Of a DNA stretch of 64,000 nucleotides, positions 12,268 to 55,742 are shown piece by piece; position 1 is the stretch's first letter, and each line of letters opens with the position of its first letter. Under the pieces are notes generated by a model, which worked only from the letters and a program-made list of their open reading frames with translations, was not told the origin of the DNA and made no database searches. Position numbers and translations under genes: made by a program. The DNA is from Mermis nigrescens (lineage: Eukaryota; Nematoda; Enoplea; Mermithida; Mermithidae), in the NCBI GenBank assembly GCA_036768485.1, contig JAVLUZ010000337.1, positions 1 through 64,000 of the forward strand. Reading direction: 5' to 3'.

Positions 12268-12399
12268 ATATAAAAAATATAAAAACCGCTCGCCGATCCA
12301 TTGCAGAGTCATTCAATTTTTTATACTAATTACTGGCTAAGATATTATTTGTTTACAAACACTCTAGCAGATGGGGCAGCGAAGCGCCCCATTCGCTAG

Positions 12400-14599: not shown

Positions 14600-14603
14600 T
14601 ACA

Positions 14604-16014
14604 TCTATATATTTGTGAAAGTTTGTTTGTATGTATGTATGTTTGTTCGAGGTTGGCTCCGGCCCCATAATAGTTGGTGGGCTGACGTTTGGCCCGAGGT
14701 CGGCCTACTGGGGAAGGATCCGTAGCGATATTTAGAATCGACCAATCACAGCCATTCGCCCTGCACACTGAGGAAGTGGACTATGTCCCCACGCTATAAG
14801 TATAGGCGATTTCGGGAGAAAGCCGTTTTTTTTGGAATTTTTTTAAAAATGGGCCCTATCTTATAGCACAGGGCATGTTACACCGTCTCCTATCTTATAG
14901 CACACGTATATGTTATACATACTATACTATGCCACGTTTGTATAATGTTACTATACCCTGTGCTATAGGATAGGACGTGATATAACATACCCAGTGCTAT
15001 AAGATAAGACATGATATAACATTTCCAATGCTATAAAATAGGACGTTATATAACATACCCAATGCTATAAGATAGGACTTGATACAACATACTCAATGCT
15101 ATAAGATAGGACGTGATATAACATACCCATTGTTACAAGATAGGATCTGATATAATATACCCAATGCTGTGAGATAGGACGTAATATAACATACCTAATG
15201 CTGTAAGATAGGACGTCATATAACATACCCCATGCTATAAGACAGAACGTGATGCAACATACCCGATGCTATAAGATAGGACGTGATACAACTTACTCAA
15301 TGCTATACAATAGGACGTAATATAACGTACGCCATGCTATACAATAGGACATGATATAACATACCCCATGCTATAAATAGGACGTGATATAACATACCTT
15401 ATGCTATATATTAGGATGTGATATAACATACCCCATGCTATAAGATAGGATGTGATATAACATACCCAGTGTTACAAGATAGGACATGATATAGCATACC
15501 CCATACTACAAGATAGGACGTGTTATACCATATATAGTGCTATAACATATCCTATGCTGTAAGATAGGTGTCCCAAAACATCAAATATGGTTGCACCAAA
15601 AATCTTTAAACATCCCTAAACATCAAAAATGGTTTTGACCAAAAAAAATTTTTAAACACACCAAAACATCAAAAATATGGTTTTAACCAAATAAAAATTT
15701 TTAAACCTCCAAAAACATCAAAAGTATGGTTTTGGACCGAAGAAAGTTTGTTTAATATTCCAAAACGTTAAAAATATGGTTATGATCAAACAAAATTTTT
15801 AACATCCCAAACCATTTAATGGTATAATTGCATTTTTTTCAATTCTTGAAATTTTGTCAGATGTTACAATAAAGATTATGCCATCTATAACACAGGCCTT
15901 TTGTATAGTGTGACACGATTTCAAGAATTGAATCAAAACAATATCAAATACAGCTTGCGATGTGTGCATAGCTAAATTATTTTTCACCCGAGCAACGCCG
16001 GGTAGTACAGCTAG
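14604..16014 (+). mobile_element. Non-autonomous Helitron C
   Basis: Starts TCTATATATTTGTGAAAG after an A and ends CAGCTAG before a T. The terminal hairpin is ACCCG...CGGGT. Its 5' end differs from copies A and B, but the internal arrays are shared. The palindromic pair CAATTCTTGAAAT / ATTTCAAGAATTG lies at 15839-15940. No coding region. Confidence 0.8.
14860..15575 (+). repeat. Expanded tandem array in Helitron C
   Basis: About 20 units of the GATAGGACGTGATATAAC / ATACCCAATGCTATAA repeat, many more than in copies A and B. Units differ by a few bases, so expansion is not very recent. Confidence 0.85.
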
Positions 16015-18826: not shown

Positions 18827-19124
18827 TGTAAGAAAGATAGGGTACAAGGACGTGAATAAAGACACAAAGATATGATTAAATTGGGTTTTCGTATTAATAT
18901 CGTTTATCACATAACTATGCGTGTTATAATCCTGTTTTAGGTGGCGGGTTCGTAATATGATAAAGTAGGTAGGTACAAATCAAGTAGGCGGATACTTCAA
19001 TGGGGGTATTTATACTCCATGCACCATAGTAAAATGGTTAGTTTCCGGCAATCATGCACCATCTAAGGTACGTACGGTAGGTGAGAGTTAAGATCTGTTG
19101 TGTAAGACTGACCATGGTCTTACA
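18827..19124 (+). repeat. 5' LTR (298 bp)
   Basis: TGTAAG...CTTACA. It aligns along its length to 30156-30436 and, inverted, to 55460-55742. The TATA region is GGGTATTTATACTCC, where the other two LTRs have GGGGTATATATACCCC. The hexamer AGTAAA stands where they have AATAAA, so this LTR has probably lost both signals. Confidence 0.9.
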
Positions 19125-19145
19125 TATTGGGGGGCAATCCGGGAA
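19125..19145 (+). other. Primer-binding-site position
   Basis: Immediately after the LTR comes TATTGGGGGGCAATCCGGGA, and in the inverted copy TATTGGGGGCAATCTGGGA. A TGG-initiated tRNA complement two bases after the LTR is the usual arrangement. I could not assign the tRNA. Confidence 0.5.
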
Positions 19146-21701
19146 ACTGATCACTTCTCAGGATCTCTCGCCGCCTACCGTACACCGGAACTACCCGGCG
19201 ACCAACACGTGAGAAGCGCCACGATGCCGATAAGCTCGACTTTTCTGTCGATTTCTTTTTTTATTGCTGCTGTTCGATCGTTGTTATCTTTTGAAATCCG
19301 CCTATTGCCCGGTGCTTAGTCCAGTGTGTGTGCTGAGGGTAAACTTATTGTCCATTAGCTCAGTTATCGACATCGAATCCATGTGCCTGATGTAGGCGAT
19401 TCCTGTTTTCATGGGTGGTCCGATATATGCTATTGAAAGTTTTGATTCTTTTCTACTTCTTGTGTTGTTTTCACACGGTGCGTCATAAGGCTATAGTAAG
19501 CAGTAATGAACTGTCGATGTTTAATTTGAACCTTTTATTGCTAATCTTATTTGTTCTTTGTTGGTGCGAAATAGTTATTTACGAGAAAACATAAAGGCTA
19601 CGCATTTCCAGCTAAAAGAGGTATGAAATGTGCAAATAATTCTCGTATATTTCCAAAAATCTCTTAATAGCCTAATTCAGATCATTTTGTTGAACTCGCA
19701 TTTGCATATGTGTTCTGTTAATCGCATTTGCATATGTGTTCTGTTAACTGCAATAACGAATTTCAAATAACTTTTCCTGAGTACAAAAATCAGATTTTTC
19801 GCTGAAAATGCATGAAATGAGACGTGCTGATTCTGCCAGCAAACCAAACTCCCTATTTGCTTGTGATTTGTTTACTCGATTTCGTTTGCTGAGCATGCTC
19901 ATATCTTTTGTTGTCATTGAGTTGCGAATCCCTTCGGACAGTTTTGTGAGCTCAATGTGATATCAAAAAAAAATGATGTTCAAAAATCAAATGTGCAAAA
20001 GTTTTGCGTTAATATCACGTTCTGAAAGTTTTACATCACAAAATTTCTTTGTCACAATTTGATATTTTGTCATGATACCTGACCAGTTAACCACATCATT
20101 TAATGTGCATGCTAATTACATTAGCTATGCTCTAATGCCTAATTTGCATAAACTTTATTTACTACGAAAAATCATATTTTCGCCAAATCTGTGCAAAAAT
20201 GTTAATTCTCTTGCCTCCATAAACCCCATTTTACCCCACTTACTAGTTGCTTATTGGAGTTCGTATGTGCATGCTCGTGCTTCACGTCGTACCCACCGGT
20301 TTTCTAAGCACTTTTGGGGGTAGCTTTTGTGAATTCATAGCAAATATTCACAATGACCTTGAAGTAAATATGCAACGTTTCTTATAAACATTTTCCGATT
20401 TTGAAATCTTCGGATTTTTGACCGCTAATGCGCACTTTATCAGTTCATTCACATGCATGCAAAATTATTTGTGCGTACCTATCTCCGCGACCTTATCCAA
20501 GTCCGGCGCGCATTCTTGCCAGGTTAGAGAGAGATTTTGAGAGAGAGCACGAGATGCATTTCGCCTTCGTAATTCGACTCAACAATTTTATCTTCAAGGA
20601 CAACATTTCAAAATTCAACTCTAATGCTCAATCTTTACGCCAAGAAATCGCACCATTTTCGGTCATTTGCCTATCAATCTTCAGCTCAAATGATTTTGCC
20701 TACCTTGAAAATGAAGTAAATTCCCGTATAAGATCAGAAGAGTTCACTATGAGAAATCTTTATACTCATATTTTCTTTCGGTCATTTAACTTTACCAAGT
20801 TTATATTCTAACTTGAACTTCAAAACTGCGTCTACCTTGAAAATGACCTAATGTTACTTTTATGGCAAAAAGTTCATTGATAAGTTTTCATTGCCTTTCA
20901 CGAGCCGACACATCACATTCAAATCAAAACAGTTCTTGGACACTTTCTGGTCACTAACCACATTCCAACTTCGTAAATATTTGATAAACAAGATGAAAAA
21001 GACGATCAAAATACGTAATTTTGTCCTTTCGAGATTGCATAATGTTTATTCGAAACTTTGCAACATGATTTTGCGCCAACAAGCGCGTCATCCCCGAAAC
21101 GCAATCTCAAATCGCACATTATACGCGCACACCTTACCTGTGATATTTCATTTTGCGCACTATTGCCCGCCAGCCGTTTTTAGTCCGTCATAGGTGACGT
21201 AGACTGTGTTGACCGGTCAATTGCGTAGCGAGCTGGCCGCTACCGTATGCCCCATTGTTTGTTTATTTATTAATCGGCACGAGGTTACATTGACACTGTT
21301 TAGGGGCATGTTTTTTTGTGTTGACACGCGTGTGTACGCTGTATGGCGCAGTTGTCGGCTTGCCCGAGATGACCTACATAAATTGAGCGCTCAATATGGC
21401 ATGGTCAGTGGTCACTCGAGGCGTGAAACCGCGGTTCGTAAAACTTGTTTTAATGTGTTGCTCGCCTTATAAATGTAATGCCGACGGAAACAGCGTAAAA
21501 CAGAATATGTAACCTAGTAATAAGCGTAAGGGCAACGCTTATATGATAAGTGCGCATGTAAAGCAGCATAGGGATCTAAGGCGGTGACCCTAATTTGTTT
21601 CGGGCGATTATCCATGCACATAATAATAATCACCTTTTTAAAAGCGCAAAAACCAGCTGTTTGTTTTTTTTAAAGAAATTTTATGTTCGCGTTTATCCGA
21701 A
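19146..21701 (+). other. Long leader of the LTR element
   Basis: About 2.6 kb between the primer site and ORF0. It holds short frames (for example 20428-20811 and 20891-21193) whose lengths are not kept in the inverted copy, so I read it as untranslated. The leader itself is conserved in that copy (52914-55459), so it belongs to the element rather than being a later insertion. Confidence 0.6.
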
Positions 21702-22274
21702 ATGTCGGCCGCAATGCTCCAAGAAATACGGGCCAAATTATCAGACTATGTCAGCGCTTTACGCCGTTGGCAAACGGCCAACGAAACCAACGAAGAAATG
21801 GCCGAACGAATAACCGAGCCTTTTCGTTCTCATCTCAGCCCCGACGCGAAGCCACTTTTTCAGCGTCTCGCCAACGTCGCTGGTTTGGCGCCGACCACCT
21901 ATCTCCACAGATACGTGTGGAATCTTCTCCACGAAGATTCCATACCCGTCCATTTCGTCGTGACTCGCTTGGTCGAGCTTCTCGACCAAGAGGCCCAGGT
22001 TTGTTGGGCCTGTATGGCTCACGACGATGGCGGTATGGAGGGGAGGATTCCACTCCGGCTCGGTTGGGCACTTACCATCGACACCCAACCGCCGGAGGTC
22101 GGCGCCGACCGTTGGAGCGCCGCCGCCAACCAATGGGGCGCCGGCTACCCGTGGAACACCAACGGTGGCGTCACCAGCCACGATGGCAGCGTCTACGACA
22201 GCGGGCCCAGCTCAACTGGGTTAACTCCGACACCGTCAGAAGCCGCTTTTTATGGCGGCAGCGCCGAATGCTAA
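21702..22274 (+). CDS. ORF0: unknown 190-aa protein upstream of gag
   Basis: An open frame from ATG 21702 to TAA 22274-22276. Its first two-thirds look protein-like and helical (AKLSDYVSALRRWQTANET, IPVHFVVTRLVELLDQEAQV, then a CWAC pair). The last third is rich in G, S, W and P. No family recognised. The inverted copy has an aligned frame (52913-52524) with roughly three-quarters identical residues, but a one-base difference in a G-run closes it after about 129 codons. A second overlapping frame (21683-22300) is also open in both copies, so frame choice rests mainly on protein-like composition. Ty3/gypsy elements do not normally carry an ORF here; an RNA-binding or regulatory accessory role is only a guess. 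Confidence 0.5.
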   Translation: MSAAMLQEIRAKLSDYVSALRRWQTANETNEEMAERITEPFRSHLSPDAKPLFQRLANVAGLAPTTYLHRYVWNLLHEDSIPVHFVVTRLVELLDQEAQVCWACMAHDDGGMEGRIPLRLGWALTIDTQPPEVGADRWSAAANQWGAGYPWNTNGGVTSHDGSVYDSGPSSTGLTPTPSEAAFYGGSAEC

Positions 22275-22847
22275 GGGCGCCGCGTCGAAATTTCCGCTGA
22301 TCGTTATCAATATTATGTGCGGAAAGTATCTATCAGCTCATCGGCACCGATTATTTATGAAACGATAACACTGCATAATCAACTATTATAGTGTAGCGCA
22401 AAGCGCATAGCTAACGAAATAAAATATTAGTCCATACTTGGTTCAGTTATTGTACGCTCTTAGCTTAATTGCTACAATTATCTTCGTTTGATTGATGCTT
22501 ATTTAGATTATTTAACTCTCTCTCTCTCTGCCTAAATTCCTTTTACTGTTTGCATATTTCATTGAATTTTGCAAGCTTTCTATTCAACGCTATTTCGAAA
22601 TCCGGAGCGCCAACGAATTTGAATCCTACAATTATATTATTTAATTATTCTTTAACGATATTTTGAAATATAGTCCGAAATTGAAGGATTAGACATATCC
22701 TCAGACAAATGATTTTAAATATTTTTCTCGTGCTGTTTTTCAGATAATTGAAAGAAACGTGAAATAGCTACAAAGTTGCAGTCAATTAACGGATCTTGAA
22801 TAATTTTCTTGCGCCATATTTACATATTTTTAGATTATCAAAATCCA
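22275..22847 (+). other. Spacer between ORF0 and gag
   Basis: AT-rich, with a short (TC)n at 22508-22530. ACATATTTTTAG at 22822-22833 could be a 3' splice site 14 bp before the gag ATG. No coding frame. Confidence 0.45.
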
Positions 22848-23870
22848 ATGAGCAGTCGTAAAATCTCTACGAGCTTACGACCAACAAATACGATGGAACG
22901 AATGAGAGAGCAATTGGAGCGTTTAGAGGTAACGGTAAGACGTCAACAGCGTCAAATGGAAGACGCTCAGCAGGCGGCGCCACTAGCGCCTCCTGTAGTG
23001 TCTGCTAGCACTGGCGGAGCTGCTAGCATAGGTGAGTATTTTCATGGGAGGTCGGACGAAAATTTCGATCGCTGGACTGATCGTTTTATCCGCGTTGCTG
23101 TAGCTAATGGTTGGGATAATCAAAAACGTAGGGTACTACTCCCGACCTACTTAAGAGATTTTGCGGAAGTGGCTTACGAATCTATCCCAGACGAGGAGCG
23201 GCTAGGGTTAGATTTTAATGCCTTAATTGAGCGACTCCGTCGTCGTTTTGTACCTGTTGAAAATACTGAATTAAAAGCACTGCAATTGCATAATCGTAAA
23301 CAGGGACCTCGGGAACCCGTCATCAGGTATGCCCTTGAGCTACAGCAACTAGCTATGCAAGCTTACCCAGGGGTAACAGCCGATATTTTAGATGCACTAA
23401 GTCGACGTTTCTTTGTTGATGGTTTAAATAGCGATCTTTGGCGCTTTGTTTCAGATCGAAAACCAAATACTTTTGCGGAAGCCGAAATGTTAGCTCGTCA
23501 GGCTGAAACGCAGCTTCAGCTAGAGGCTGAACGACAGCCGTCTGGCAGCTCGTTCGCGACGAGCTCCCATGGTTCAGCTGGAGGTCGCCGTCCGCCTGGG
23601 TCCCAGCGCCCCCGTCCGGCCCCACAGCAGCAACGTTCGACTCAAATACGTTGTTTTCAATGCGGCCGGTTAGGCCATATAAGCCGAAATTGCCATCAAC
23701 CGCCCCAATATGGTTCGTCATTTCGCACTACTCGTCCTACGCCGCCTATGCATGCAACATTCAATCGTCCAACCCATCGTCCGGCGTCACAACCACCACC
23801 AGGCCGAAATCGCCCGGGGTTGAACCATCGTCACGCCAAACAAACCCCCGGCGTGTTTTTGCGGTTCTAA
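22848..23870 (+). CDS. gag: Gag polyprotein, 340 aa
   Basis: Structural protein of the element's particle. From ATG 22848 the protein begins with a charged coiled-coil-like region (MERMREQLERLEVTVRRQQR), then a retrotransposon gag capsid region containing the word GEYFHGRSDENFDRWTDRF and a second half with ELKALQLHNRKQGPREPVIRY. A Gln/Pro-rich linker leads to one CCHC zinc knuckle, CFQCGRLGHISRNC (C-x2-C-x4-H-x4-C), near residue 270. The frame upstream of 22848 opens only with a non-ATG codon, so I use the ATG. Its last 220 nt overlap the next ORF in the -1 frame. The aligned copy at 51608-50595 keeps the frame partly and the same stop position. Confidence 0.9.
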   Translation: MSSRKISTSLRPTNTMERMREQLERLEVTVRRQQRQMEDAQQAAPLAPPVVSASTGGAASIGEYFHGRSDENFDRWTDRFIRVAVANGWDNQKRRVLLPTYLRDFAEVAYESIPDEERLGLDFNALIERLRRRFVPVENTELKALQLHNRKQGPREPVIRYALELQQLAMQAYPGVTADILDALSRRFFVDGLNSDLWRFVSDRKPNTFAEAEMLARQAETQLQLEAERQPSGSSFATSSHGSAGGRRPPGSQRPRPAPQQQRSTQIRCFQCGRLGHISRNCHQPPQYGSSFRTTRPTPPMHATFNRPTHRPASQPPPGRNRPGLNHRHAKQTPGVFLRF

Positions 23871-26512
23871 ACGACTCGGAGGAGCCGAGTGATGCAGATT
23901 GGGTTGAGGAGAATAGTAAGGAGGGAGATGTCATATGTGCTATTGACGAAGGTATGAGTCCGGTAGATTGTGATAATATGTCACTGCAAGCTAATATTAA
24001 TCAACCGGCATTTTTGCTTTTTGAGCCTAATCATCAGTTTTGGAATTATTTTAAAAGATTGCAAATCGCCACAAGATATATTGCTACATTTTTCGCGTTT
24101 TTGGCCATTTTCTTGAGTTTTTCAACACTATTTTTCGGCTATTTCACTTTTAATCGCACCTCATTTGCAATACAAGCTTATCAAATTTGTGAACATCAGA
24201 CATCTGGGGCTCATTTTTCTTTACCGTCCGGGTTGGCTTGTCAACCACCCACCCCAGCACTTATACGTACGTTTGCAGCTCGTATTTGGACACCTAATTT
24301 AGATGCAGAACGCATTAAAGCCTATAAATGTGCAGGAGTAACGCATACGATATGTACTAACACCGGATTTTTGGGATCTCGCGGGATAACTCGAGATTCT
24401 CAAGTCACTGACCCCATAAATAGTTATCGCTGTCAACGAATGATTTTAACTGAATATTTTCGGGGTCAAAAATTATATAAAGTGAAATCTCATTTATGGC
24501 ACACTAATATTACTTTGCAAGTACGTTATGAATATTGTTGCAAGGACGTATGTCAAACTATTAGCAATGGTATGATACAAGAAGGTCAAATAGCTACTTA
24601 TGATGGTATTCATTTAACATCTAATCTTGGTGATCTCTCTGCATGTAAGCCAGATTCTGGACAATGTGAAATTGATGATGCAATAGTTATATGGGAGCCG
24701 AACGACCTGAAAGCCCCATGTCCATATGTACAAGGTGGTTCTTACGTAATTAAGCGGTCGGGACCTTATTATATTATTGAGAATATTCAAGAAGCTTTCA
24801 CTGCTATTCGAAAATTACCTGTGCCAAAACATGTTTGTTTACCTAATTTTCTCATCGCTTTGGACCAAGGAACTTTGATGCAAGCTTATGATAATGAAAC
24901 TTTTCATTTGGCACAACCAGAATCAAATATTTCTCAAAATTTTTCGGAAATCCCCGCACCAGCTAATCTTATAAAATCCGGAGAATCTGCGGAAATAAAT
25001 TCTCGATTACAGTATTTAGAAGCTTCTTTTAATCGCTTGGAAACCACCCGTTTTTCTCAAATCTGGACGCATATTTGTCGTATAGCTGATGCGCAGCTTC
25101 AAACTGTGCGTCAGTTATTGCGTTTAGATGCTACTTTAGCTGCAAGGTTATGGACTCAGCGTAATGATGTAGCAGCCCGAGTCGCAGGGGAAACCCTCCT
25201 CATTTGGCCATGCGTTCAGGTTCAGCCCGACCTTATTTTTTGGAATTATCGTGTCGGCAAGGAGTGCTATGCGCTCTTGCCTCTTGTTATTAACGAAACT
25301 CTGTATTTTATTTTGCCAGGAACGCAAGACTTAGTTTCAGCTGCTCCGCAGGTGCCCTGCTTTCAAGCACCTTCTGGCGTCCATTATGACGCCAGCCAGC
25401 ACCGATGGATAAGTTCCCACGGCGTAGTTGACGTCAAACCACTATTACAACGACGGTTGGACGTTTCAATACTCCTAGATTCACCCACCACCATCATTTT
25501 TGACGCCCCGATGGTTTTTCGGGATCTAGGGCGCCAACCGCCTTTTCAGACGTCACTCGAGCTCACCGCTCTCGAAACCTGGCGGTTGCGACAGCAAATG
25601 CAACAACTCGTGAATTTTACGTCCACCCTAAACATAGATCCGGCACAATTTCGCCAAGTTTTGCGCGATATTGGGGATGGCGTAAAAGACGTTAATGGTC
25701 TGGCGGTTTCACACCTCCAGACCGCAGTAAGTGGTTTATTTCAGCAAACTGGTCATGCTATATCTTCACTTACAGGTGGAATCGGCCAGACCTTAACTAA
25801 TGCAATATTTTGGTGTTTTGTCATTATAATTGTGCTTGGTTTAGGCTATCTAGGGCTGAGATACGGCTGGTGCTGTATCTGGTGTCATTGGGGTTGCGGC
25901 GTTTGCTCATCTGCTTGCCGCTGGTTCGCTATGCTGTGCCCACGTTTGTGCACGCAAATGACGTCATTGTGCTGCCCTCGACATTCACACCCCTTGAGCC
26001 GACAGCCCCTGACAGTTCGTTATCGCGCCCAGCAGCCAGAAATATCCGCCGAAACACATTATCGGCGCCGAAATCGTACGCCGATTTTGGCCATTGCACA
26101 AACCGGGATAGCTATGTCCCGGCCTCATATACATGTCCGTATGCCCAACGGACGTCGGCTACTAGCCCTTGTTGACACAGGGTCTACAGTGTCAATTTTA
26201 GATAATATTACGTATTTAGAGTGTAAAGATGACCAACCCTTGCAACCGCGTCAAACGGTTACAGCCACTTCTATTACTGGTCATGCTATACAATCACCTG
26301 GTGAAATTATTTTAGACGTACAGATTGGAACTCAAAACTTACCTATAAAATTTGTCATAATGCAAAACAGTCCTTATTCTATAGTAATAGGCTGTGACGT
26401 AATAAATAAATTATGTGGCAGTTCACAACGTTTCACTTTTGACTATAAACAAAAATGTGCTCGTTTTGGTCAAAACACGCCTATTCCATTAATTTTCTCA
26501 ACAAGCGCATAA
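23651..26512 (+). CDS. Envelope-like glycoprotein joined to aspartic protease (953-codon frame)
   Basis: One frame carries two units. Residues about 143-167 are a long hydrophobic segment (signal-anchor or signal peptide). A Cys-rich ectodomain follows with several N-x-S/T sites (NRT, NIT, NET, NIS, NFT). Near residues 660-715 comes a Gln/Leu-rich, possibly coiled-coil stretch, then a membrane span at about 719-740 (CFVIIIVLGLGYLGL) and a Cys-rich tail. The protease begins near residue 830: LVDTGSTVS has D842-T843-G844, and VIGCDVI is the second conserved motif. The layout resembles a class I-like viral surface protein; I cannot name its viral source. No ATG precedes residue 4. The frame may be entered from gag by a -1 shift, or the glycoprotein may start at an internal Met after splicing. 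It ends at TAA 26510-26512, where the RT frame takes over. Confidence 0.75.
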   Translation: MFSMRPVRPYKPKLPSTAPIWFVISHYSSYAAYACNIQSSNPSSGVTTTTRPKSPGVEPSSRQTNPRRVFAVLNDSEEPSDADWVEENSKEGDVICAIDEGMSPVDCDNMSLQANINQPAFLLFEPNHQFWNYFKRLQIATRYIATFFAFLAIFLSFSTLFFGYFTFNRTSFAIQAYQICEHQTSGAHFSLPSGLACQPPTPALIRTFAARIWTPNLDAERIKAYKCAGVTHTICTNTGFLGSRGITRDSQVTDPINSYRCQRMILTEYFRGQKLYKVKSHLWHTNITLQVRYEYCCKDVCQTISNGMIQEGQIATYDGIHLTSNLGDLSACKPDSGQCEIDDAIVIWEPNDLKAPCPYVQGGSYVIKRSGPYYIIENIQEAFTAIRKLPVPKHVCLPNFLIALDQGTLMQAYDNETFHLAQPESNISQNFSEIPAPANLIKSGESAEINSRLQYLEASFNRLETTRFSQIWTHICRIADAQLQTVRQLLRLDATLAARLWTQRNDVAARVAGETLLIWPCVQVQPDLIFWNYRVGKECYALLPLVINETLYFILPGTQDLVSAAPQVPCFQAPSGVHYDASQHRWISSHGVVDVKPLLQRRLDVSILLDSPTTIIFDAPMVFRDLGRQPPFQTSLELTALETWRLRQQMQQLVNFTSTLNIDPAQFRQVLRDIGDGVKDVNGLAVSHLQTAVSGLFQQTGHAISSLTGGIGQTLTNAIFWCFVIIIVLGLGYLGLRYGWCCIWCHWGCGVCSSACRWFAMLCPRLCTQMTSLCCPRHSHPLSRQPLTVRYRAQQPEISAETHYRRRNRTPILAIAQTGIAMSRPHIHVRMPNGRRLLALVDTGSTVSILDNITYLECKDDQPLQPRQTVTATSITGHAIQSPGEIILDVQIGTQNLPIKFVIMQNSPYSIVIGCDVINKLCGSSQRFTFDYKQKCARFGQNTPIPLIFSTSA

Positions 26513-28685
26513 AGAACGAATCGCTTTTGTCTCAGTGAAAGACACAATTTTAGTACCTCCAGTTTCTATTTATTCTTTACCAATCAATGTTGATTTAAAC
26601 ACTTTTAATTCAACTTGGGTAGATATTAATTCTTTTACACCTTGCGACGCAATTTATATACCAAATCTGCGTTTAAATTTAAACGAAAACGATTTTTCTT
26701 CCCTTCCTATTATCAATTACTCTAAGCAACCTATTCGCTTATATAAAAACATGCGTATTGCTAGAATTTGCTCTGTTAGTCACGTCTTAACAGGTGAGGA
26801 AGCGGGAGAGTTTCGGGAAAATCAATGTCAGGAAAAACTCAAAAATTTCCGCGAATTGATTCAAGAAAAATTGATTCATGTCCCGGACCCAAGCGTTCGA
26901 AAACAATTTTCCGAATTTTTGGAAAAAAATTCATCTATTTTCGGAGTTAATAGATCCTTGGGACGGACGTCCATTGTACAGCATGGTATCGATACGGCCA
27001 ATCACAGGCCGATTTCTCAGCCGCCTTATCGAATACCGTATGCTAAACGGCAAATTGTTGAGGAGCATGTAAATAAAATGTTGGAAAATGGCATTATTAG
27101 GCCATCTCAGAGCCCATGGGCTGCTCCCATCGTTCTAGCTGATAAAAAGGACGGATCCAAACGTTTTTGTGTCGATTATAGAAAGTTAAACGAATGTACT
27201 GTAAAAGATTCGTACCCATTGCCATTAATTGAGGACATTTTCAGTCAACTCAAAGGATCTACGCTTTTCACAACCTTAGATTTAGAACAAGGTTATCATC
27301 AAATCGAGTTAATTGAAGAAGACAAAAATAAAACAGCTTTTAACTCATTTTTGGGTCTCTTTGAATTTAACGTCCTTCCATTTGGCTTGTCCAACGGCCC
27401 AGCCACTTTTCAGAGAACTATGGAAAAAGTTCTGAGAGATTTAAAATGGCGAAATTGTTTCGTTTATCTGGATGACATTTTAATTTGTAGTTCTGACCCC
27501 GAAACTCACATTAAACAGCTTAAACAAGTTTTCGATCGGCTTGGCCGAGCTGGTTTAACTCTGAAATTGCAAAAATGTGAATTTGCTTTGAATGAAGTAA
27601 GCTACCTAGGTCATATTATCGATCGTAATGGTTTGCATGTTAATCCGGCCAAAATAGACGGATTATTCCACATGTCAGTGCCTCAGACTGTCACAGAGGT
27701 ACGCAGCTTCCTAGGTTTAGCTAATTACTATAGACGCTTCATTAAAAATTTCGCAGATAAGACACATGCACTTAATAAATTGTTGCGTAAAAATGTGCAT
27801 TTTGTTTGGTCGGAAGAATGCATGCAGAGTTTTCAAACGATCAAAAATGATTTAGTTTCTGCTACTACCCTAGCTTTTCCAGATTTTTTGCAGCCATTTT
27901 TGGTTCAGACAGATGCTAGCGGAACTGGGATCGGGGGAGTCCTAGCCCAAATGATAGAGGGGCAGGAATGTCCGGTAGCATTTGTCTCACGCACGTTAAC
28001 TAAAGCTGAGCGTAATTATTCAACTGTTGAAAAAGAGGCACTGGCTATTACTTATGCCATTAAACAGTTTCGCTCGTACTTATATGGACACCATTTCACG
28101 CTCATTACAGATCATGCTCCCATCCGTCTCTTAAAAATTCATGATTCGGCACCATCTAGACTCGTTCGTTGGGTCTTATCATTGCAGGAGTACGACTACG
28201 AAATCGTTTATCGCAAGGGTCGTGAAAATGCAAACGCCGACGCTCTTTCACGCTTGCCTGCTGCTCCCATTATTACAAAAGCAGCCATAAATGCAAAGCA
28301 GGTGTGCGCGGTGGAGATGCCGCGTGACCTAATAAGTATGCAGAGACGTGATGTGTTCTTAGGTGCCATTTTTCGTTTATTACAGGCTCGACGGGTGCCG
28401 TCACACATGAACGCGGAGCAGTGGGACGCCGCCGAGAATTATCTACTCGGAAACGACGGCGTCCTTAAATATCAAAAGGATCCGAACGCCGAACCATTAG
28501 TGGCCGTCCCCCGAAGGTTAATTCCCACGCTGCTCCAGGCGTTGCATGATGACGCCACCAGCGGACATTTAGCTTTTCAGCGTACCTATGAGAAAGCTAA
28601 AGAACGTTTTTTTGGCCGGGGTTGCGTTCTGATATATTTAAATATTGTAGGGAGTGTTTGCCCTGCCAGAAACGTCAACCCATAA
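26511..28685 (+). CDS. pol: Reverse transcriptase / RNase H, with start of integrase
   Basis: Copies element RNA to DNA and degrades the RNA strand. The frame runs on from the protease after a one-frame change; the first usual codon is GTG 26535. Counting from there, residues about 1-110 link protease to RT, and RT covers about 180-365 with FCVDYRKLNECT, YLDD at 311-314 and FGLSNGPATFQRTM. RNase H has D460 (QTDASGTGIGG), E501 (VEKEALAI) and D526 (ITDHAP). The tether and integrase N-terminus follow, including GHLAFQRTYEKAKERFF, the His part of the HHCC finger. The frame is lost in a T-run at about 28607-28613, and the Cys part of the finger continues in another frame. All RT and RNase H catalytic residues are intact. 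Confidence 0.92.
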   Translation, partial: KERIAFVSVKDTILVPPVSIYSLPINVDLNTFNSTWVDINSFTPCDAIYIPNLRLNLNENDFSSLPIINYSKQPIRLYKNMRIARICSVSHVLTGEEAGEFRENQCQEKLKNFRELIQEKLIHVPDPSVRKQFSEFLEKNSSIFGVNRSLGRTSIVQHGIDTANHRPISQPPYRIPYAKRQIVEEHVNKMLENGIIRPSQSPWAAPIVLADKKDGSKRFCVDYRKLNECTVKDSYPLPLIEDIFSQLKGSTLFTTLDLEQGYHQIELIEEDKNKTAFNSFLGLFEFNVLPFGLSNGPATFQRTMEKVLRDLKWRNCFVYLDDILICSSDPETHIKQLKQVFDRLGRAGLTLKLQKCEFALNEVSYLGHIIDRNGLHVNPAKIDGLFHMSVPQTVTEVRSFLGLANYYRRFIKNFADKTHALNKLLRKNVHFVWSEECMQSFQTIKNDLVSATTLAFPDFLQPFLVQTDASGTGIGGVLAQMIEGQECPVAFVSRTLTKAERNYSTVEKEALAITYAIKQFRSYLYGHHFTLITDHAPIRLLKIHDSAPSRLVRWVLSLQEYDYEIVYRKGRENANADALSRLPAAPIITKAAINAKQVCAVEMPRDLISMQRRDVFLGAIFRLLQARRVPSHMNAEQWDAAENYLLGNDGVLKYQKDPNAEPLVAVPRRLIPTLLQALHDDATSGHLAFQRTYEKAKERFFGRGCVLIYLNIVGSVCPARNVNP

Positions 28686-29627
28686 CTTACTTTTTACCCG
28701 TCCAACCCCTTCACTCTATTCCAGCAGCTGCTGCTATGCAGCATTGGGTTATGGATACCATGGGACCACTGCCAACGGCCCATGGAAAAATTAATGATTT
28801 TAGTTTTCATAGATCGGATGACAAAATGGGCTGAGACCGTGGCTACCGTAGACATCCGAGCCACAACCATTGCGGAGCATTTCCTGGAGCGCATCGTTTT
28901 GCGTTTTGGGGCGCCCAAGGTTGTCCAATCGGATCGCGGCACGGGCTTTGTTGCTGCCGTTTTTCAGGAGGTTTGCCGGCTATACTAGGAGCGGCACATC
29001 ACCTCGACGGCCTATTGCCCCCAGACGAACGGATTGGTGGAGCGTTTCAACCGTACGCTGCAAACCATGCTGACCACAACCGTTCAGGACGAGCAGAACG
29101 AGTGGGATCGGTTCCTGCCGGCTGTCACCTTCGCCTACAACACCACCCGACACGCCAGCACGGGATACACGCCCTACTACCTCGTTTATGGGCGCCAGGC
29201 GAAGCTACCAATGGAGCAAGCCTTAGATGCTGATACGCCCGATGAACCAGAGGCTGCCTCTGTCCGAGAAATCCATCGTCATTTACGTCTGGCACGCCAA
29301 TTTGCCATTGAGGCTGCCCAGAGAGCCCAGCGACCGCAGAAGGAGCAATATGATTGTTGAAATTGCACGGAAAAACCAATGCCTTGTTATCGTCCGGGCC
29401 AATTAGTGCTTTTGCAGAATGCCCGAGCCACGTCGAAATTCCATTCTCGCTGGCTCGGTCCATATGAAGTTTGTTGTGTACCCCCACCAAATGCCACTAT
29501 TTGCGAATTGGTGGGACGTCAACGGATTCGGGTCATCCATTTGAATCAAATTCGTCCATTTTGGGGCGAAAAACGCGATGCATTAGATGATGCAGACGCC
29601 ATGAGCGATGGCAGTATTGAGTACTAA
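28614..29627 (+). pseudogene. Integrase core and C-terminus, broken
   Basis: The finger Cys pair (CRECLPCQKRQ) is in one frame to about 28790. After a change in an A-run (GGAAAAATTAA) the core continues: VFIDRMTKW carries the first Asp and VQSDRGTGF the second. A TAG at 28987-28989 interrupts before TAYCPQTNGLVERFNR, which has the catalytic Glu. A TGA at 29355-29357 interrupts before the C-terminal GPY-like domain (YRPGQLVLLQN, FHSRWLGPYEV). The frame ends at TAA 29625-29627. Domain order and motifs are those of Ty3/gypsy integrase. Two frame changes and two stops mean this copy cannot make a full integrase as sequenced. Confidence 0.88.
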
Positions 29628-30140
29628 ATTTTTGGTTTCTTTTATGCATGATGCGTACCTATACCTATATTTAATTATTTAATCTTGTAATACGTTATGT
29701 TGCCAGTGCATCAGAGGTGCATTATGCCATGATGCAGTACAAGTAGCAAATAGCAGAGGCGATTTATGCCATGCTATTGTCGATGTCCTATTGGCAGAGG
29801 CGACTTATGCCGCGCCAATCGCATTGTTGATGAGTTCCTATGCAATTTAGGGAGCTGGAGTGGACCAGAGCCTTGAATTGGCAAGGAATCGCACAATACC
29901 ACCCTGGGAGCTGAAGTGGACCAGAGCTCAGGCTAAAAAGGACGCATATTTCTTAATTTTTAATTAGTACGCATGTATGCATATTTAATCAATATTTTAT
30001 CTACTTCATTATGCCCAGTTTTCCATATTCTGCATCTATGTCGCCACCCGGAAATTTTTGGCTTCTAACATTTCAAACTGACGACAAAAATAAATAATAC
30101 TCGGAATTCAGCTAACACTTCTCCTCAGCCGAACAATCAA
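29628..30140 (+). other. 3' untranslated region of the LTR element
   Basis: Non-coding, with internal short repeats: GCAGAGGCGATTTATGCC at about 29754 and a near copy at 29794, and GGAGCTGGAGTGGACCAGAG at about 29851 with a near copy at about 29907. No env frame is present here, although this is where env usually lies. Confidence 0.7.
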
Positions 30141-30142
30141 TG

Positions 30143-30155
30143 TAAAAGGGAGGAA
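30143..30155 (+). other. Polypurine tract
   Basis: TAAAAGGGAGGAA directly abuts the 3' LTR and is the expected plus-strand primer. Confidence 0.85.
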
Positions 30156-30436
30156 TGTAAGGAAAGATAGGATTCATAAGACTTGATTAAATGGGGTTTA
30201 TGTGTCAATGTCGTTCCTCTTATCATAATACGTGTTTATATTCCTGTTATATGGTGGTAGGTTCGTAATATGTATAAGTAGGTAGGCACTAATCGAGTAG
30301 GCGGATACTTAGATGGGGTATATATACCCCATGCACCATAATAAAATGGTTAGTTTCCGGCAATCATGCACCATCTAAGGTATGTACGGTAGGTGAGAGT
30401 TAAGATCTGTTGTGTAAGACTGACCATTGTCTTACA
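30156..30436 (+). repeat. 3' LTR (281 bp)
   Basis: TGTAAG...CTTACA. It holds a 16-bp palindromic TATA region, GGGGTATATATACCCC (30315-30330), and AATAAA at 30340-30345. The same palindrome and hexamer occur in the inverted copy's LTR, so these are probably the ancestral promoter and poly(A) signals. Confidence 0.92.
30315..30330 (+). promoter_or_regulatory. Palindromic TATA region of the LTR
   Basis: GGGGTATATATACCCC is a perfect 16-bp palindrome with a core TATATATA. It lies 10 bp before the AATAAA. Confidence 0.6.
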
Positions 30437-37511: not shown

Positions 37512-39259
<1,748 letters not shown>

Positions 39260-50222: not shown

Positions 50223-50600
50223 CCGGTTGACACATCAACCTGGATAGTAAAGAAAAATGAGCTCCCGATGTTTGATGTTCGCAAAATTGATAAGCTTGTA
50301 TTGCAAACAATGAATGATTAAAAAAGAAATAGCCGAAAAATAGTGTCAAAAAACTCAAGAAAATGGCCAAAAATGTTAAAAATGTAGCAATATATTTGCT
50401 GGCTATTTGCATTCTTTCAAAGTAATCGTAAAACTGAGTGTTAGGCTCGAAAATTGCAAAGTCTGTTTGCTTTATATTAGCTTCGTCACAATCTAGCGGG
50501 CTCATACCTTTGTCAATAGCACATATGACATCCACCTCCTTACTATTTGCAGACTCCTCAACCCAATTGGCATCACTCAGCTCATACGAGTCATTTAGGA
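50223..50600 (-). pseudogene. Start of the glycoprotein gene in the inverted copy
   Basis: The frame overlapping the gag end continues through VDVICAIDKGMSPLDCD and a hydrophobic segment (IATFLTFLAIFLSFLTLFFG) to SGAHFSLLSRLMCQP, then enters the minisatellite. It retains the same position relative to gag as in the full element. Confidence 0.75.
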
Positions 50601-51608
50601 CAGCAAAAACACGCCGGGGGTTTGTCTGGCATGACGATGATTCAACCCTGGGTGATTTTGACCCAGTGGCAGTTGTGACGTTGGACGATGGGTTGGATGA
50701 TTGAACGTTGAACGCATGGGCGGGGCTGGACGATTATTGCAAAATGACGAACCATATTGGGGCGGTTGCTGGCCGTTTTGGCTTATATGGCCTAAATGGC
50801 CACATCAAAAGCAACATATTTAAGTCGAACGTTGTTATTGTTGGGTTGGCCGGAGCACCGGGCTCTAATGGACAGCGGCTTCCCCTGAAGCATGGGAGCT
50901 CATGGCGAACGAGCTACCAGATGGCTGTCATTCAGCTTCGAGTTGAAGCTGCGTTTTGGCCTGATGAGCTAACATTTTGGCTTCTGCAAAAGTATTAGGT
51001 TTTTGATCTGAAACAAAGCGTCAAAGATCGCTATTTAAAGCATCAACAATGAAATGGTGACCCAGTGCATGTAAAATATCGGCTGTTACCCCTGGATAAG
51101 CTTGCATAGCTAGTTGCTGTAGCTCAAGGGCATACCTGATGACGGGTTCCTAAGGTCCCTGCTTACGATTATGTAACTGGAGTGCTTTTAATTCAGTGTT
51201 TTCAACAGGAACAAAACGGCAACGGAGTCGCTCAATTAAGGCATTGAAATCTAGCGCGAGCCGCTTGTCATCTGGGATAGATTCATAAACCACTTCCGCA
51301 AAATCTCTTAAGTAGGTCGGGACCCTATGTTTTTGATTATCCCAACCATTAGCTACAGCAACATGAATAAAACGATCAGTCCAGCAATCGAAATTTTTGT
51401 CTGACCTCCCATGAAAATACTCACCTATGCTAGCAGCTCCGCCAGTGCTAGCAGAAACTGCAGGAGGCGCCAGTGGCGCCGCCTGATGAGCGTCCTCCAT
51501 TTGACACTGTTGGCATCTTACCGTTACTTCCAAACGTTCCAATTATTCTCTCATCCGTTCCACGGTATTAGTTGGCCATAAGCTCGTAGAGATCTTATGA
51601 CTGCTCAT
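50595..51608 (-). pseudogene. gag of the inverted copy
   Basis: Starts at ATG 51606-51608 (MSS), is broken at least twice (TAA near 51543-51545, a frame change near 51150) and keeps the gag stop position (50595-50597). The best-preserved part is GEYFHGRSDKNFDCWTDRF to LKALQLHNRKQGP. Several Arg codons of the first copy are Cys or His here, as expected from CpG decay. The zinc-knuckle region is damaged. Confidence 0.75.
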
Positions 51609-52344
51609 TGAATTTTCAATTTTAATCTAAAAATATATATATCACAAGAAAAATATTTAGGATTAGCTAATTGACCGCAAGTTTGTAGATATTCCACGTT
51701 TGACAAGTGCTTTTCTTTCAATTATCTGAAAAATAGCACGAGCAAAATATTTAAAATCATCTGTTTGATAATATTTCACGACTAATCCTTGAATTTTGGG
51801 ATTATTTTCCGAAATAGCGCCAACAGAATATTTATAGCTGGATAATTCAAATTTGTTTAAGCTTCAAATTGGAAAATCGTGCATTTAAATTGGAAATTCG
51901 CGAAGTATCCATGAAGCATCCAAACAGCAAGGAAATTTAGGCGAGAGAGAGAGAGTTATGTTTTATACAATTATAATCCAAAACAAATAACTGGATTCTA
52001 GCATGAATTAAGCTAAGTAGCCCAGAGCCTTGAGTAGGCAACTATCAAACGAAGGAAATTGTAGCAATTTAGCTAAGAGCATGCAATAATTGAACCAAGT
52101 ATGAGCTAATATTTTATTTCGTTAGCTGTGCGCCTGACACTACATTATAATAGTTGATTAAACAGTTATATCGATTCATAAACAAATCAGGTGCCAATGA
52201 GCTGATTAAATGGTTTCTGCACATAATATTAATTATAATTAGTGGAAATTTTGGCGAGGCGCTCTTAGCATTTGGCGCTGCCACCGTAAAAGCGGCTTCT
52301 GACATTGTCAGTGTTAGCCCAGATGAACTGGGCCTGCTGTCTTC

Positions 52345-52913
52345 CTAGATATCCGGACTGCTGCTGCCATCGTGACTGGTGACGCCACCGTTGGCATCCC
52401 AGGGGTAGCTGGCGCCCGAATCGTAGTTGGTGCCCCATTGGTTGACGCGCCCATGCATGGCGCTCTGGTAATTGGCAGTGGCGCTCCAATGGTTGGCGCC
52501 AAGCTCCAGCGGTTGAGTGTCAATCAAAATTGCCCAACCAAGCCGGAGTGGAATCCTCCCTCCATACCACCATTGTTGTGACCCATACAGGCCCAGCAAA
52601 CCTGAGTTTCTTGGTCGAGAAGCTTGACCAAGCAAGTCATGACAAAATGGACGGGTATGGAGTCTTTGTGGAGAAGATTCCACACGTATCTGTGGAGACG
52701 TGTGGTCGGCGCCATACCAGCGATGTTGACGAGTAGCTGGAAATATTGTTTTGCGTCGGGATTGAGATGACAATGGAATGGCTCGGTAATTTGCTCGGCC
52801 ATTCCTTCGGTGATTACGTTGGTTGTTTGCCAGTGGCGCAAAACGTTGACATAATCTGATAATTTGTCCTGAGTTTCTTGGAGCATTACGGCCCACATTT
52901 TGAATGAACGCAA
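52345..52913 (-). pseudogene. ORF0 of the inverted copy
   Basis: Aligned with 21702-22274. The frame from 52913 keeps KLSDYVNVLRHWQTTN, RLHRYVWNLLHKDSIPVHFV and CWACMGH, then ends early at 52524 because a G-run has three G where the first copy has four. The rest continues in the neighbouring frame. Confidence 0.6.
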
Positions 52914-55459
52914 ACATAAAATTTCTTAAAAAAAATAACAAACAGCTGGTTGTTCATTTGCGCGTTGAAGAGGTGACAATTATTATGTTCAGGTATAATC
53001 GCCCAAAAGTAGTTATGGTCACCGCCTTAGACCACTATGCTGCTTTGCATGCACACTTATCGTACAAGCATTGCCTTTACGCTTATTGGTTACATATTCT
53101 GTTTTACGCTGTTTCCGTCGGCATTACATTTATAAGGCGAGCAACACATTAAAACAAGTTTTATGAACCGCGGTTTCACGCCTCAAGTGACCACTGACCA
53201 TGCCATATTGAGCGCTCATATTATGTAGGTCATCTTAGGCAAGCCAACAGCTGCGCCATCAGCGTATCACACGAGTGTCAACACAAAAATACATGCCCCC
53301 AAACAGTGTCAATGTAACCTCATGCCAATTAATTTATAAATAAACAATGGGGCATACGGTAGCGGCCAGCTTGCTACGCAATTGACCGGTCAACACAGTT
53401 CTATGTCATCTATGACGGACTAAAACCGGCTGGCAGGCAATATTGCGCAAAATGAAATATCACAGGTAAGGTGTGCGCGTATAATGTGTGATTTGAGATT
53501 GCGTTTTGGGGATGACGCGCTTGTTGGCACAAAATCAAGTATCAAGTTGCAAAGTTTTGAATAGACATTATGCAATCTTGAAAGGACAAAATTAAGTATT
53601 TTGATCGTCTTTTTCATCTTGCTTATCAAATATTTACGAAGTTGGAATGTGGTTAGTGACCAGAAAGTGTCCAAGAACTGTTTTTATTTGAATGTGATGT
53701 GTCAGCTCGTGAAAGGCAATGAAAGCTTATCAGTGAACTTTTGGATCGCCATAAGAGTAACCTCAGGCCATTTTCAAGGTAGATGCAGTTTAGAAGTTCA
53801 AGTTAGAATATGAACTTGGTAAAGTTAAATGACCAAAAGAAAATATGAGTATAAATATTTCTCATAGTGAACTCTTCTGATCTTATACGGGAATTCACTT
53901 TAGGTCATTTTCAAGGTAGGCAAAATCGTTTGCACTGAAAAGTGATAGGCAAATGACCGAAAATGGTGCGATTTCTTGGCGTATAGATTGAGCATTAGAG
54001 TTGAATTTTGAAATGTTGTCCTTGAAGATAAAATTGCTTAGTCGAATTACGAAGGCAAAATGCATCTTGTGCTCTCTCTCAAAATCTCTCTCTAACCTTG
54101 CAGGAATGCGCGCCTGACTCGGATAAGGTCATGGAGATAGGTACGCACAAATAATTTTGCATACATGTGAATGAACTGATAAAGTGCGCACTAGCAGTCA
54201 AAAATCCGAAGATTTCAAAATCGGAAAATGTTTATAAGAACTTTGCATATTTACGTTTTCAAGGTCATTGTGAATATTTTCTATGACTTGACAAAAGCTA
54301 CCCCCAAAAGTGCTTAGAAAATCGGTAGGTAAGAGGTGAAGCACAAACATGCACATACGAGCTCCAGTAAGCAATAAGAGGGGTAAAATGGGGCTTATAG
54401 AGATAAGAGAATTAACATTTTTGCACAATAGATTTGGCGAAAGTATGATTTTTCGTAGTAAATAAAATTTACCCAAATAAAGCATTAGAGCATAGCTGAT
54501 GTAGTTAGCTTGCACATTAAAAGATGTGGTTAACTGGTCAGGTGTCATGACAAAATATCAAATTGTGACAAAGAAATTTTGTGATGTAAAACTTTCAGAA
54601 CGTGATATTAACGCAAAACTTTTGCACATTTGATTTTTGACCATCATTTTTGATATTACATTGAGCTCACAAAACTGTACGAAGGGGTTCGCAACTCAAT
54701 GACAACAAAAGATATGAGCATGCACAGCAAACAAAATCGAGTAAACAAATCACAAGCAAATAGGGAGTTTGGTTTGCTGGCAGAATCAGCACGTCTCATT
54801 TCATGCATTTTCAGCAAAAAATCTGATTTTTGTATTCAGGAAAAGTTATTTGAAATTCGTTATTGCAGTTAACAGAACACATATGCAAATGCGAGTTCAG
54901 CAAAATGATCTGAATAAGGCTATTAAGAGATTTTTGGAAATATACAAGAATTATTTCCACATTTCGTACCTCTTTTAGCTGGAAGTTTTCTCATAAATAC
55001 CTATTTTGCACAAACAAAGAACAAACAAGATTAGCAATAAAAGGTTAAAATTAAACATCGACAGTTCATTACTGCTTACTATAGCCTTATGACGCACTGT
55101 GTGAAAACAACACAAGAAGTTGAAAAGTATCAAAACTTTCAATAGCACATATATTTATCAGACCACCCATAAAAAAGGAATTGCCTACATCAGGCCCATG
55201 GATGCGGTGTCAATAACCAAACTAATGACAGTAGTCACGGTTTTTCCCCAGAACACACACTGGACTAAGCACCGGGCAACAGGCGGATTTTGAAAGATTA
55301 TCGACGATCAAACAGCAGTACTAAAAAAAGAAATTGACAGAAAAGTCGAGCTTATTGGCATCATGGTGCTTCTCACGTGTTGGTCGCTGGGTAGTTCTGG
55401 TGTACGGTAGGTGGCGAGAGATCCTGAGAAGTGATCAGTTTCCCAGATTGCCCCCAATA

Positions 55460-55742
55460 TGTAAGACCATGGTCAGTCTTACACAGCAGATCTTAACTCT
55501 CACCTACCGTATGTAACTTAGATGGTGCATGATTGCCGGAAACTAACCATTTTATTATGGTACATGGGGTATATATACCCCATCTAAGTATCCGCCTACT
55601 TGATTAGTGCCTACCTACCTACTTATACATAATACGAACCCACCACCTAATAACAGGAATATAAACACGTATTATGATAAGAGAAATGACATTAACATAT
55701 AAACCCCATTTGATCAAGTCTTTGAATCCTATTTTCCTTACA
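55460..55742 (-). repeat. LTR of the inverted copy (283 bp)
   Basis: Starts (minus strand) TGTAAGG and ends CTTACA, keeping GGGGTATATATACCCC and AATAAA. It is closer to the 3' LTR at 30156 than to the 5' LTR at 18827. Confidence 0.9.

What the first reader, a model, noticed from the sequence alone, without database searches (positions are those of the whole stretch)
22848..29627. Glycoprotein gene lies between gag and protease in a Ty3/gypsy element
The 953-codon frame at 23651-26512 has an N-terminal hydrophobic segment, a Cys-rich glycosylatable ectodomain, a membrane span and a Cys-rich tail, and then runs straight into an aspartic protease (DTG) and RT. In the env-bearing Ty3/gypsy elements I know (errantiviruses), env is downstream of integrase; here the 3' region has none. 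The glycoprotein may therefore be translated as part of a Gag-Env-Pro-Pol chain, needing signal-peptide-like topology inside a polyprotein, or be made from a spliced RNA. I know of no established family with this order.
Basis: partly seen in the sequence, partly recalled or inferred. Interest (0 to 1): 0.88.

Follow-up and report, generated by a model that had tools for sequence, protein, structure and literature searches.

The report
Envelope gene sits inside retrotransposon polyprotein
In this genome (probably a parasitic worm), a group of virus-like jumping genes carries its envelope (membrane-fusion) gene in the middle, between the capsid gene and the enzymes instead of at the end, a gene order I could not find described.

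Summary
The 953-codon frame encodes a signal-peptide-like segment, Cys-rich ectodomain, membrane span, Cys-rich tail and aspartic protease. The ectodomain core matches the chu/bornavirus-type class III fusion protein (Pfam Monjiviricetes_fusion E=5.7e-12; 13 of 13 aligned relatives); the PDB profile search found only herpesvirus gB, weakly. Of 70 env loci listed in the genome, 54 have a listed RT downstream on the same strand, none upstream. Of 18 I chose to read, 15 show gag-env-RT; in 8, gag and env share one open frame, in 2 it runs from gag to integrase (2287 and 2302 aa). Two loci of a sister group (RT 52-55%, Env ~30%) have the same order in one frame. Env is under purifying selection (dN/dS ~0.07). 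A protease-site-like motif recurs in the Gag-Env and Env-Pro linkers. I infer a Gag-Env-Pro-Pol polyprotein threaded through the membrane and cut by signal peptidase and its own protease. The window copy is broken (pol out of frame, stops in integrase) and a mosaic. No RNA or protein evidence was available.

The parts
18827..19124 (+). 5' LTR (298 bp, TG...CA)
   Evidence: 99.7% identical to the 3' LTR of relative L010
19128..19145 (+). putative primer binding site just after the 5' LTR
   Evidence: position and TGG start; primer tRNA not identified
21642..22274 (+). orf0, 210-aa ORF upstream of gag, no Pfam match; related sequence upstream of gag in L009, L011, L013, L014, L023, L025 and in the inverted copy
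22848..23870 (+). gag (capsid plus CCHC zinc knuckle at about 23649-23693)
   Evidence: Pfam Retrotrans_gag 6.7e-4 (below its cutoff), zf-CCHC 3e-4 (above cutoff)
23813..23819 (+). only X XXY YYZ heptamer in the gag frame within the gag/env overlap; possible -1 frameshift site (weak)
   Evidence: 1222 of 2000 codon shuffles also contain one; downstream fold no better than shuffles (z 0.02)
23849..23866 (+). linker motif, site A (after the Gag zinc knuckle), protease-site-like
23927..23944 (+). linker motif, site B (DVICAI), before the signal peptide
   Evidence: in the linker of 12 of 14 loci with an open env frame; not found in the open frames of the other two (L017, L024), which start close to the signal peptide
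23651..26512 (+). env-pro frame, 953 aa (open from 23531)
24059..24178 (+). internal signal-peptide-like segment, predicted cut before YQICE
   Evidence: hydropathy; A or G at -1 in 13 of 13 aligned sequences; no signal-peptide predictor was run
24179..25774 (+). Env ectodomain; Pfam-matched class III core 24995-25369
25778..25879 (+). Env transmembrane segment
25880..26020 (+). Cys-rich tail of Env, predicted cytosolic
26081..26095 (+). linker motif, site C (PILAI) between the Env tail and protease
   Evidence: a form of it in 13 of 14 loci (not L026)
26117..26413 (+). aspartic protease domain (DTG)
   Evidence: Pfam RVP 2.9e-5
26493..28685 (+). RT, RNase H and integrase zinc-binding domain, in a shifted frame in this copy
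28686..29360 (+). integrase core, interrupted by stops in this copy
30156..30436 (+). 3' LTR, from a different subfamily than the 5' LTR
50224..55742 (-). second, truncated copy: LTR, orf0, gag and start of env in the same order

Best explanation
This is one copy of a large, old group of env-bearing Ty3/gypsy (Metaviridae) elements whose gene order is gag-env-pro-RT-RNaseH-integrase. Shown: order, frames, conservation, Env class by sequence. Inferred: a ribosome makes Gag-Env-Pro-Pol as a chain. In some families it is one uninterrupted frame; in others a frame change lies after gag (window family) or between Pro and RT (L020 family) and would need frameshifting. Gag stays in the cytosol; an internal signal peptide after Gag sends the Env ectodomain into the ER lumen and signal peptidase cuts it free. 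A transmembrane segment brings the chain back, so Pro and Pol are again cytosolic. The element's own protease then cuts at conserved Y/C/F/L-A-V/I-like sites in the Gag-Env linker, between Env tail and Pro, and in some families between RNase H and integrase. Env, a relative of chu/bornavirus-type class III fusogens, would let particles enter cells.
For: Order: 15 of 18 loci read; 54 of 70 env loci have a listed RT 3' within 8 kb, 0 of 70 one 5' within 6 kb. One frame: gag to integrase in L013 and L019 (2287 and 2302 aa); gag+env in one open frame in 8 of 18, domains checked by Pfam piece by piece in L013 and L019. The L013 copy has 238-bp LTRs 99.2% identical and a 4-bp TSD. Sister group: L031 and L032 have gag-env-pro in one frame, Env 27-33% identical, Pfam Monjiviricetes_fusion 2e-18 and 1.3e-12. 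Class III: 13 of 13 members hit PF24664, 11 of 13 BDV_G, 1 of 13 Glycoprotein_B; all 31 PDB matches up to E=1 are gB, best E 0.0025. Hydrophobic segment followed by A/G and [YF]Q[LIY]CE in 13 of 13. Selection: env dN/dS 0.069 for L013-L023 (dS 0.74), RT 0.062 (dS 2.1). Motif, strict form: 18 hits in 2421 linker positions against 5 in 15811 elsewhere, shuffled linkers mean 0.3, maximum 3; loose form: 35 against 54, shuffled mean 5.0, maximum 13. Codons of the motif vary, so selection is on protein. Env, gag and RT distances are correlated across 10 loci.
Against: No RNA, ribosome or protein data. A uniform chain would make Env, Gag and Pol equimolar, unusual for a retroelement. Only 2 of 18 loci are open from gag to integrase, and some families break the frame after gag or after Pro. 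The window family needs frameshifting, for which the only heptamer is one expected by chance, without special structure. 5 of 10 linkers have an acceptor-like site followed by an ATG in the env frame, so splicing stays possible. The motif was found by looking at these same sequences, the loci are related (several near-identical), 3 of 11 loci have no strict match, and the site-B and site-C patterns also match elsewhere in some proteins. The RNaseH-IN form was seen only in L009, L010, L013 and L023. The [YF]Q[LIY]CE start is not kept exactly in the sister group. The PDB match is weak and covers about 90 residues; the AlphaFold model of Env alone was unusable (mean pLDDT 36.6). If the assembly is the published Mermis one it is nanopore-based, so single-base frame breaks may be errors.
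Confidence: 0.74

Rival explanations
1. The order is real, but Env is made from a spliced RNA that skips gag, as in vertebrate retroviruses; the shared frame is a by-product.
For: Loci have Met codons in the env frame upstream of the predicted cleavage site. 5 of 10 linkers tested have an acceptor-like site whose first downstream ATG is in the env frame. A frame break lies after gag in the window family.
Against: Those sites lie at scattered positions (-9 to -519 nt before mature Env) and L020 has no acceptor-like site at all. The gag-env linker carries protein-level conserved motifs upstream of the signal peptide, which a spliced env would not need. Env and pro are fused in one frame in the window and in most loci read.
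Confidence: 0.18
2. Env was inserted into the gag-pro junction as a dead passenger and is only carried along.
For: Many listed copies contain stops.
Against: dN/dS about 0.07 in L013-L023, like RT; 16 ectodomain Cys invariant in 13 sequences; kept in a sister group with about 30% Env identity.
Confidence: 0.03
3. The glycoprotein acts as a membrane anchor or cell-to-cell spread factor for Gag particles, not as an infectious envelope.
For: Fusion to Gag would tether Gag to membranes; the window sequence lacks the basic KR/RR site that 8 of 13 aligned Env sequences have in mid-ectodomain.
Against: The full ectodomain, its Cys and the fusion-core region are constrained, as expected of a fusogen.
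Confidence: 0.15

Closest known systems
Errantiviruses / gypsy (Metaviridae with env)
   Same: Ty3/gypsy-type RT and LTR layout plus an envelope gene (RT best PDB match is Ty3; errantivirus layout recalled; ICTV profile PMC7879559 seen as search listing only)
   Different: env lies 3' of integrase there (recalled); here env lies between gag and pro and its glycoprotein matches class III chu/bornavirus-type models
Atlas virus, hookworm Belpaoviridae (PMC9094657, passages read)
   Same: nematode element with Env as part of a single polyprotein (2828-residue Gag-Pol-Env)
   Different: BEL/Pao, Env at the C-terminus, class II phlebovirus-like fusogen
Anakin, mosquito BEL-Pao with chuvirus glycoprotein (PMC7642597, passages read)
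   Same: retroelement that captured a chuvirus-type glycoprotein
   Different: BEL-Pao; the paper's introduction puts the envelope-like genes of Roo, Tas and Cer-7 downstream of the polyprotein; no gag-env-pro order in the passages seen
Jingchuvirales glycoprotein EVEs (PMC10084718, passages read)
   Same: chuvirus-type glycoproteins next to Gypsy fragments in insects
   Different: the authors state no clear evidence of capture by Gypsy elements
Lokiretroviruses and TelKA of bdelloids (PMC9040795, PMC5408684, passages read)
   Same: retroelements with Env related to fusion proteins of negative-strand RNA viruses
   Different: TelKA carries a paramyxovirus-F-like protein as ORF3, a class the paper describes as downstream of pol; lokiretroviruses have a dual RNase H and are close to retroviruses
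Cer1 of C. elegans (PMC10309623, passages read)
   Same: nematode Gypsy/Ty3 element with gag and pol not separated by a stop
   Different: the passages describe a spliced cerv gene, not an envelope between gag and pol
Alphavirus structural polyprotein (recalled, no call)
   Same: cytosolic capsid followed by internal signal and envelope in one chain
   Different: no protease-reverse transcriptase returning to the cytosol; analogy of mechanism only

Membership tests
Metaviridae (Ty3/gypsy) | domain order PR-RT-RNaseH-IN in pol | tested here: met
Metaviridae (Ty3/gypsy) | RT closest to Ty3-type RT | tested here: met
   Ty3 RT/RNase H best of 205 PDB sequences, E 2.7e-86; PDB sampling of LTR elements is thin, and the RT tree holds no named clades
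Metaviridae (Ty3/gypsy) | LTRs with TG...CA ends and 4-6 bp TSD | tested here: met
   L013 4-bp and L009 5-bp TSD; none seen for the mosaic window copy; no LTR found in the piece fetched for L019
Errantivirus | env located 3' of integrase | tested here: not met
   0 of 70 env loci have a listed RT upstream within 6 kb
Errantivirus | errantivirus-type fusion protein | tested here: not met
   viral-glycoprotein matches are Monjiviricetes_fusion, BDV_G and Glycoprotein_B only
Class III fusion glycoproteins (chu/borna/herpes gB type) | sequence match to a family profile | tested here: met
   (Pfam above cutoff for Monjiviricetes_fusion in the window, L031 and L032); weak gB match
Class III fusion glycoproteins (chu/borna/herpes gB type) | class III fold of the whole ectodomain | tested here: inconclusive
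   single-sequence model mean pLDDT 36.6
Class III fusion glycoproteins (chu/borna/herpes gB type) | membrane fusion activity | not testable with these tools
   needs experiment
Belpaoviridae (Atlas-like) | BEL/Pao RT | tested here: inconclusive
   favours Ty3; no BEL/Pao RT was in the comparison by name
Belpaoviridae (Atlas-like) | Env at the C-terminus of the polyprotein | tested here: not met

The most novel reading that the evidence does not exclude
A lineage of nematode LTR retroelements makes its envelope as a middle segment of a Gag-Env-Pro-Pol chain threaded out and back through the ER membrane, so that capsid and enzymes are held at the membrane beside the fusogen until cut by signal peptidase and the element's protease: an assembly logic not described for any reverse-transcribing virus in the papers I could search.
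Probability: 0.6. Interest if true: 0.9.

Novelty: new variant of a known kind. Interest (0 to 1): 0.86.

Why it matters
Env-bearing retroelements that I know of put env after pol, expressed apart or at the end of a polyprotein. A conserved gag-env-pro-pol order shows that env capture need not happen 3' of pol and that an envelope can be encoded inside the main chain, beside Gag. It gives a testable model of how one polyprotein supplies cytosolic and lumenal parts and, set against PMC10084718, a case of a Ty3/gypsy lineage holding a chu/borna-type fusogen through long evolution.

Tried and rejected
Rejected: chance or fused-ORF artefact (order repeated in many loci and in a sister group); nested insertion in this copy (inverted copy in the window and 15 of 18 loci share the order); dating the window copy by its LTRs (mosaic); a well-supported frameshift site after gag in the window family (heptamer expected by chance in 1222 of 2000 shuffles; fold z 0.02); an env splice acceptor at a shared position. 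Protein database searches with Env found nothing at E <= 0.01 (only proteins of 0.55-1.75 times the query length are candidates, so full polyproteins could not appear). The viral contig scan found none. Rfam on the window: no match. The single-sequence structure model was unusable, so no fold search was run. I did not hand genome loci to structure prediction because its stated list does not name fetch from genomes; the second job was unused.

Limits: the genome search scored 70 env and 138 RT candidates of 1874 and 3765, so counts are lower bounds and absence from a list is not absence. The 18 loci were chosen by me for variety out of 70 and include near-identical ones (for example L009-L011, L013/L014, L015/L023, L017/L022). 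Host identity rests on assembly size (523,963,438 b, 860 contigs; Mermis nigrescens 524,220,005 b, 867 scaffolds, PMC10989877 passages): a lead, not a test. dS is saturated for most distant pairs.

Full report
What is there. The window holds an LTR element from 18827 to 30436 with a 298-bp 5' LTR and a 281-bp 3' LTR. In order it carries orf0 (21642-22274), gag (22848-23870), an env-pro frame (23651-26512, open from 23531) and pol (26493-29360, broken). Env has a hydrophobic segment, an ectodomain, a transmembrane segment and a Cys-rich tail. A second, inverted, truncated copy at 55742-50224 carries LTR, orf0, gag and the start of env in the same order.

What Env is. Pfam places residues 449-573 of the 953 in Monjiviricetes_fusion (E=5.7e-12) and, below cutoff, BDV_G. 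In an alignment of 13 natural Env sequences of the same genome (the others 46-55% identical to the window's), 13 of 13 match Monjiviricetes_fusion, 11 of 13 BDV_G and 1 of 13 Glycoprotein_B. A profile of that alignment against the PDB matched 31 distinct sequences at E up to 1, all named glycoprotein B, best E 0.0025, over about 90 residues. gB, like the chu/bornavirus group, is a class III fusogen (recalled). Sixteen Cys of the ectodomain and four of the tail are invariant. The model of Env alone was too poor to use.

How general the order is. The own-genome search listed 73 Env matches, which merge to 70 loci, the window's included. Against the 138 listed RT matches, 54 of 70 env loci have RT downstream on the same strand within 8 kb, 50 of them at 600-1500 bp, and 0 of 70 have RT upstream within 6 kb. 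Of the 16 without a listed RT, L024 does have RT downstream and L026 has none in the stretch read; the other 14 were not looked at. I read 18 loci, L009-L026, chosen for variety; several are near-identical. Gag lies upstream of env in 16, RT downstream in 17, both in 15; L012 and L015 lack a gag match and L026 lacks RT. Gag and env share one open frame in 8 of 18, and gag to integrase is one frame in 2 of 18, L013 and L019. Pfam on pieces of these two confirms gag, protease, RT, RNase H and integrase. L013 has 238-bp LTRs, 99.2% identical, and a 4-bp target duplication; the piece fetched for L019 (L028) showed no LTR match.

Deeper relatives. Of 22 listed RT matches at 51-55% identity, 10 sit in open frames of 2149-2525 aa. 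Two of these were read, L031 and L032: both have gag, env and pro in one frame, with Env 27-33% identical to ours and Pfam Monjiviricetes_fusion at 2e-18 and 1.3e-12. Of four RT loci without an Env row, three have env upstream of RT (two with a frame break inside env) and one begins inside the protease; a fifth was set aside because of a run of N. I found no relative with intact gag-pro adjacency, but sampled only these. Sixteen element RTs form one clade against 119 database RTs (support 0.96), with P0002 as nearest neighbour.

Constraint. For L013-L023 env dN/dS is 0.069 at dS 0.74, and RT 0.062 at dS 2.1; L013-L025 and L025-L023 give 0.077 and 0.072 for env at dS near 1.8-1.9, and most other distant pairs are saturated in dS. 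Env, gag and RT distance matrices of 10 loci are correlated (0.46 to 0.72, with 1 to 15 of 2000 permutations as high), consistent with one old acquisition and joint descent.

Frames and processing. The window family (window, L009, L011 and the inverted copy) has a frame change after gag; L010 has the gag C-terminus and env in one frame. The L020 family has Gag-Env-Pro (1386 aa) and RT-integrase (1066 aa) in overlapping frames with an A-run heptamer in the overlap; a 1386-aa frame recurs in 7 rows and a 1066-aa frame in 10 rows. Homopolymer errors of a nanopore assembly could make or hide such breaks. All 13 aligned Env sequences have a hydrophobic segment, then A or G, then [YF]Q[LIY]CE, the pattern of a signal-peptidase site (inference, no predictor run; the search presupposed A or G). 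The sister loci L031 and L032 do not keep this exact start. A motif of the form V/I/T/M/A, then Y/C/F, A, V/I occurs 18 times in 2421 linker positions and 5 times in 15811 others in 11 loci; shuffled linkers give 0.3 on average, 3 at most. A looser form gives 35 and 54, shuffled mean 5.0. It lies after the zinc knuckle, before the signal peptide, between Env tail and Pro and, in L009, L010, L013 and L023, between RNase H and integrase. L020, L022 and L024 have no strict match. The motif was chosen after seeing the data and the loci are related.

Splicing. Among 10 loci, 5 have an acceptor-like site in the linker whose first ATG is in the env frame, at positions from -9 to -519 nt before mature Env; the other five have none of this kind. 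No shared arrangement was seen, and RNA data would decide.

Model. Gag, signal peptide, lumenal Env, transmembrane segment, cytosolic tail, Pro and Pol give a topology in which Gag and Pol are both cytosolic. Signal peptidase would cut before Env, and the element's protease in the linkers. This would explain how Env can stand in the middle without trapping the enzymes in the lumen. It is inference from anatomy.

Known and not known. Atlas virus (PMC9094657, passages) has Env in a single polyprotein, but at its end and in BEL/Pao. Anakin (PMC7642597, passages) is a BEL-Pao with chuvirus glycoprotein. PMC10084718 (passages) reports no clear Gypsy capture of such glycoproteins. The phrase gag-env-pol was in 0 papers and a set of like phrases gave 0; the broader searches showed no such order in their listings or in the passages I read (passages; outline only for PMC12440569). 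Subscription papers and most preprints were not searched.

Host. The genome size and contig count are close to the published Mermis nigrescens assembly; the window also has FLYWCH/MULE and a sub-threshold ShK match. This is a lead only.

Noticed in passing
21642-22274: orf0: a 210-aa ORF between a 2.5-kb leader and gag, no Pfam match, with related sequence upstream of gag in other families (28% identity to L025) and in the inverted copy; an unknown accessory gene of the group.
   Followed up: partly
28600-30436: The 3' end of the window element, with its LTR, is only 79-92% identical to L009 while upstream of 28400 it is 98-100%: the copy is a mosaic of two subfamilies, and no target duplication is seen.
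   Followed up: partly
50224-55742: The inverted copy differs from the window copy largely by G>A and C>T (255 of 588 differences, 141 of those at CpG), as expected of decay by deamination.
   Followed up: partly
L031 (between Env and RT): By eye, a second protease-like segment (without DTG) precedes the Pfam-matched protease; perhaps a duplicated protease.
   Followed up: no
Env mid-ectodomain in alignment A1: 8 of 13 sequences have a basic KR/RR site; the window, L012 and L026 lack it, and L017/L022 have one further on.
   Followed up: no
48953-49909 (-): FLYWCH plus MULE transposase ORF.
   Followed up: no
38201-39059: Transposase pieces: HTH_Tnp_Tc3_2 and DDE_3, both below Pfam cutoff.
   Followed up: no
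10591-15829: Large direct duplications, 87-96% identical.
   Followed up: no
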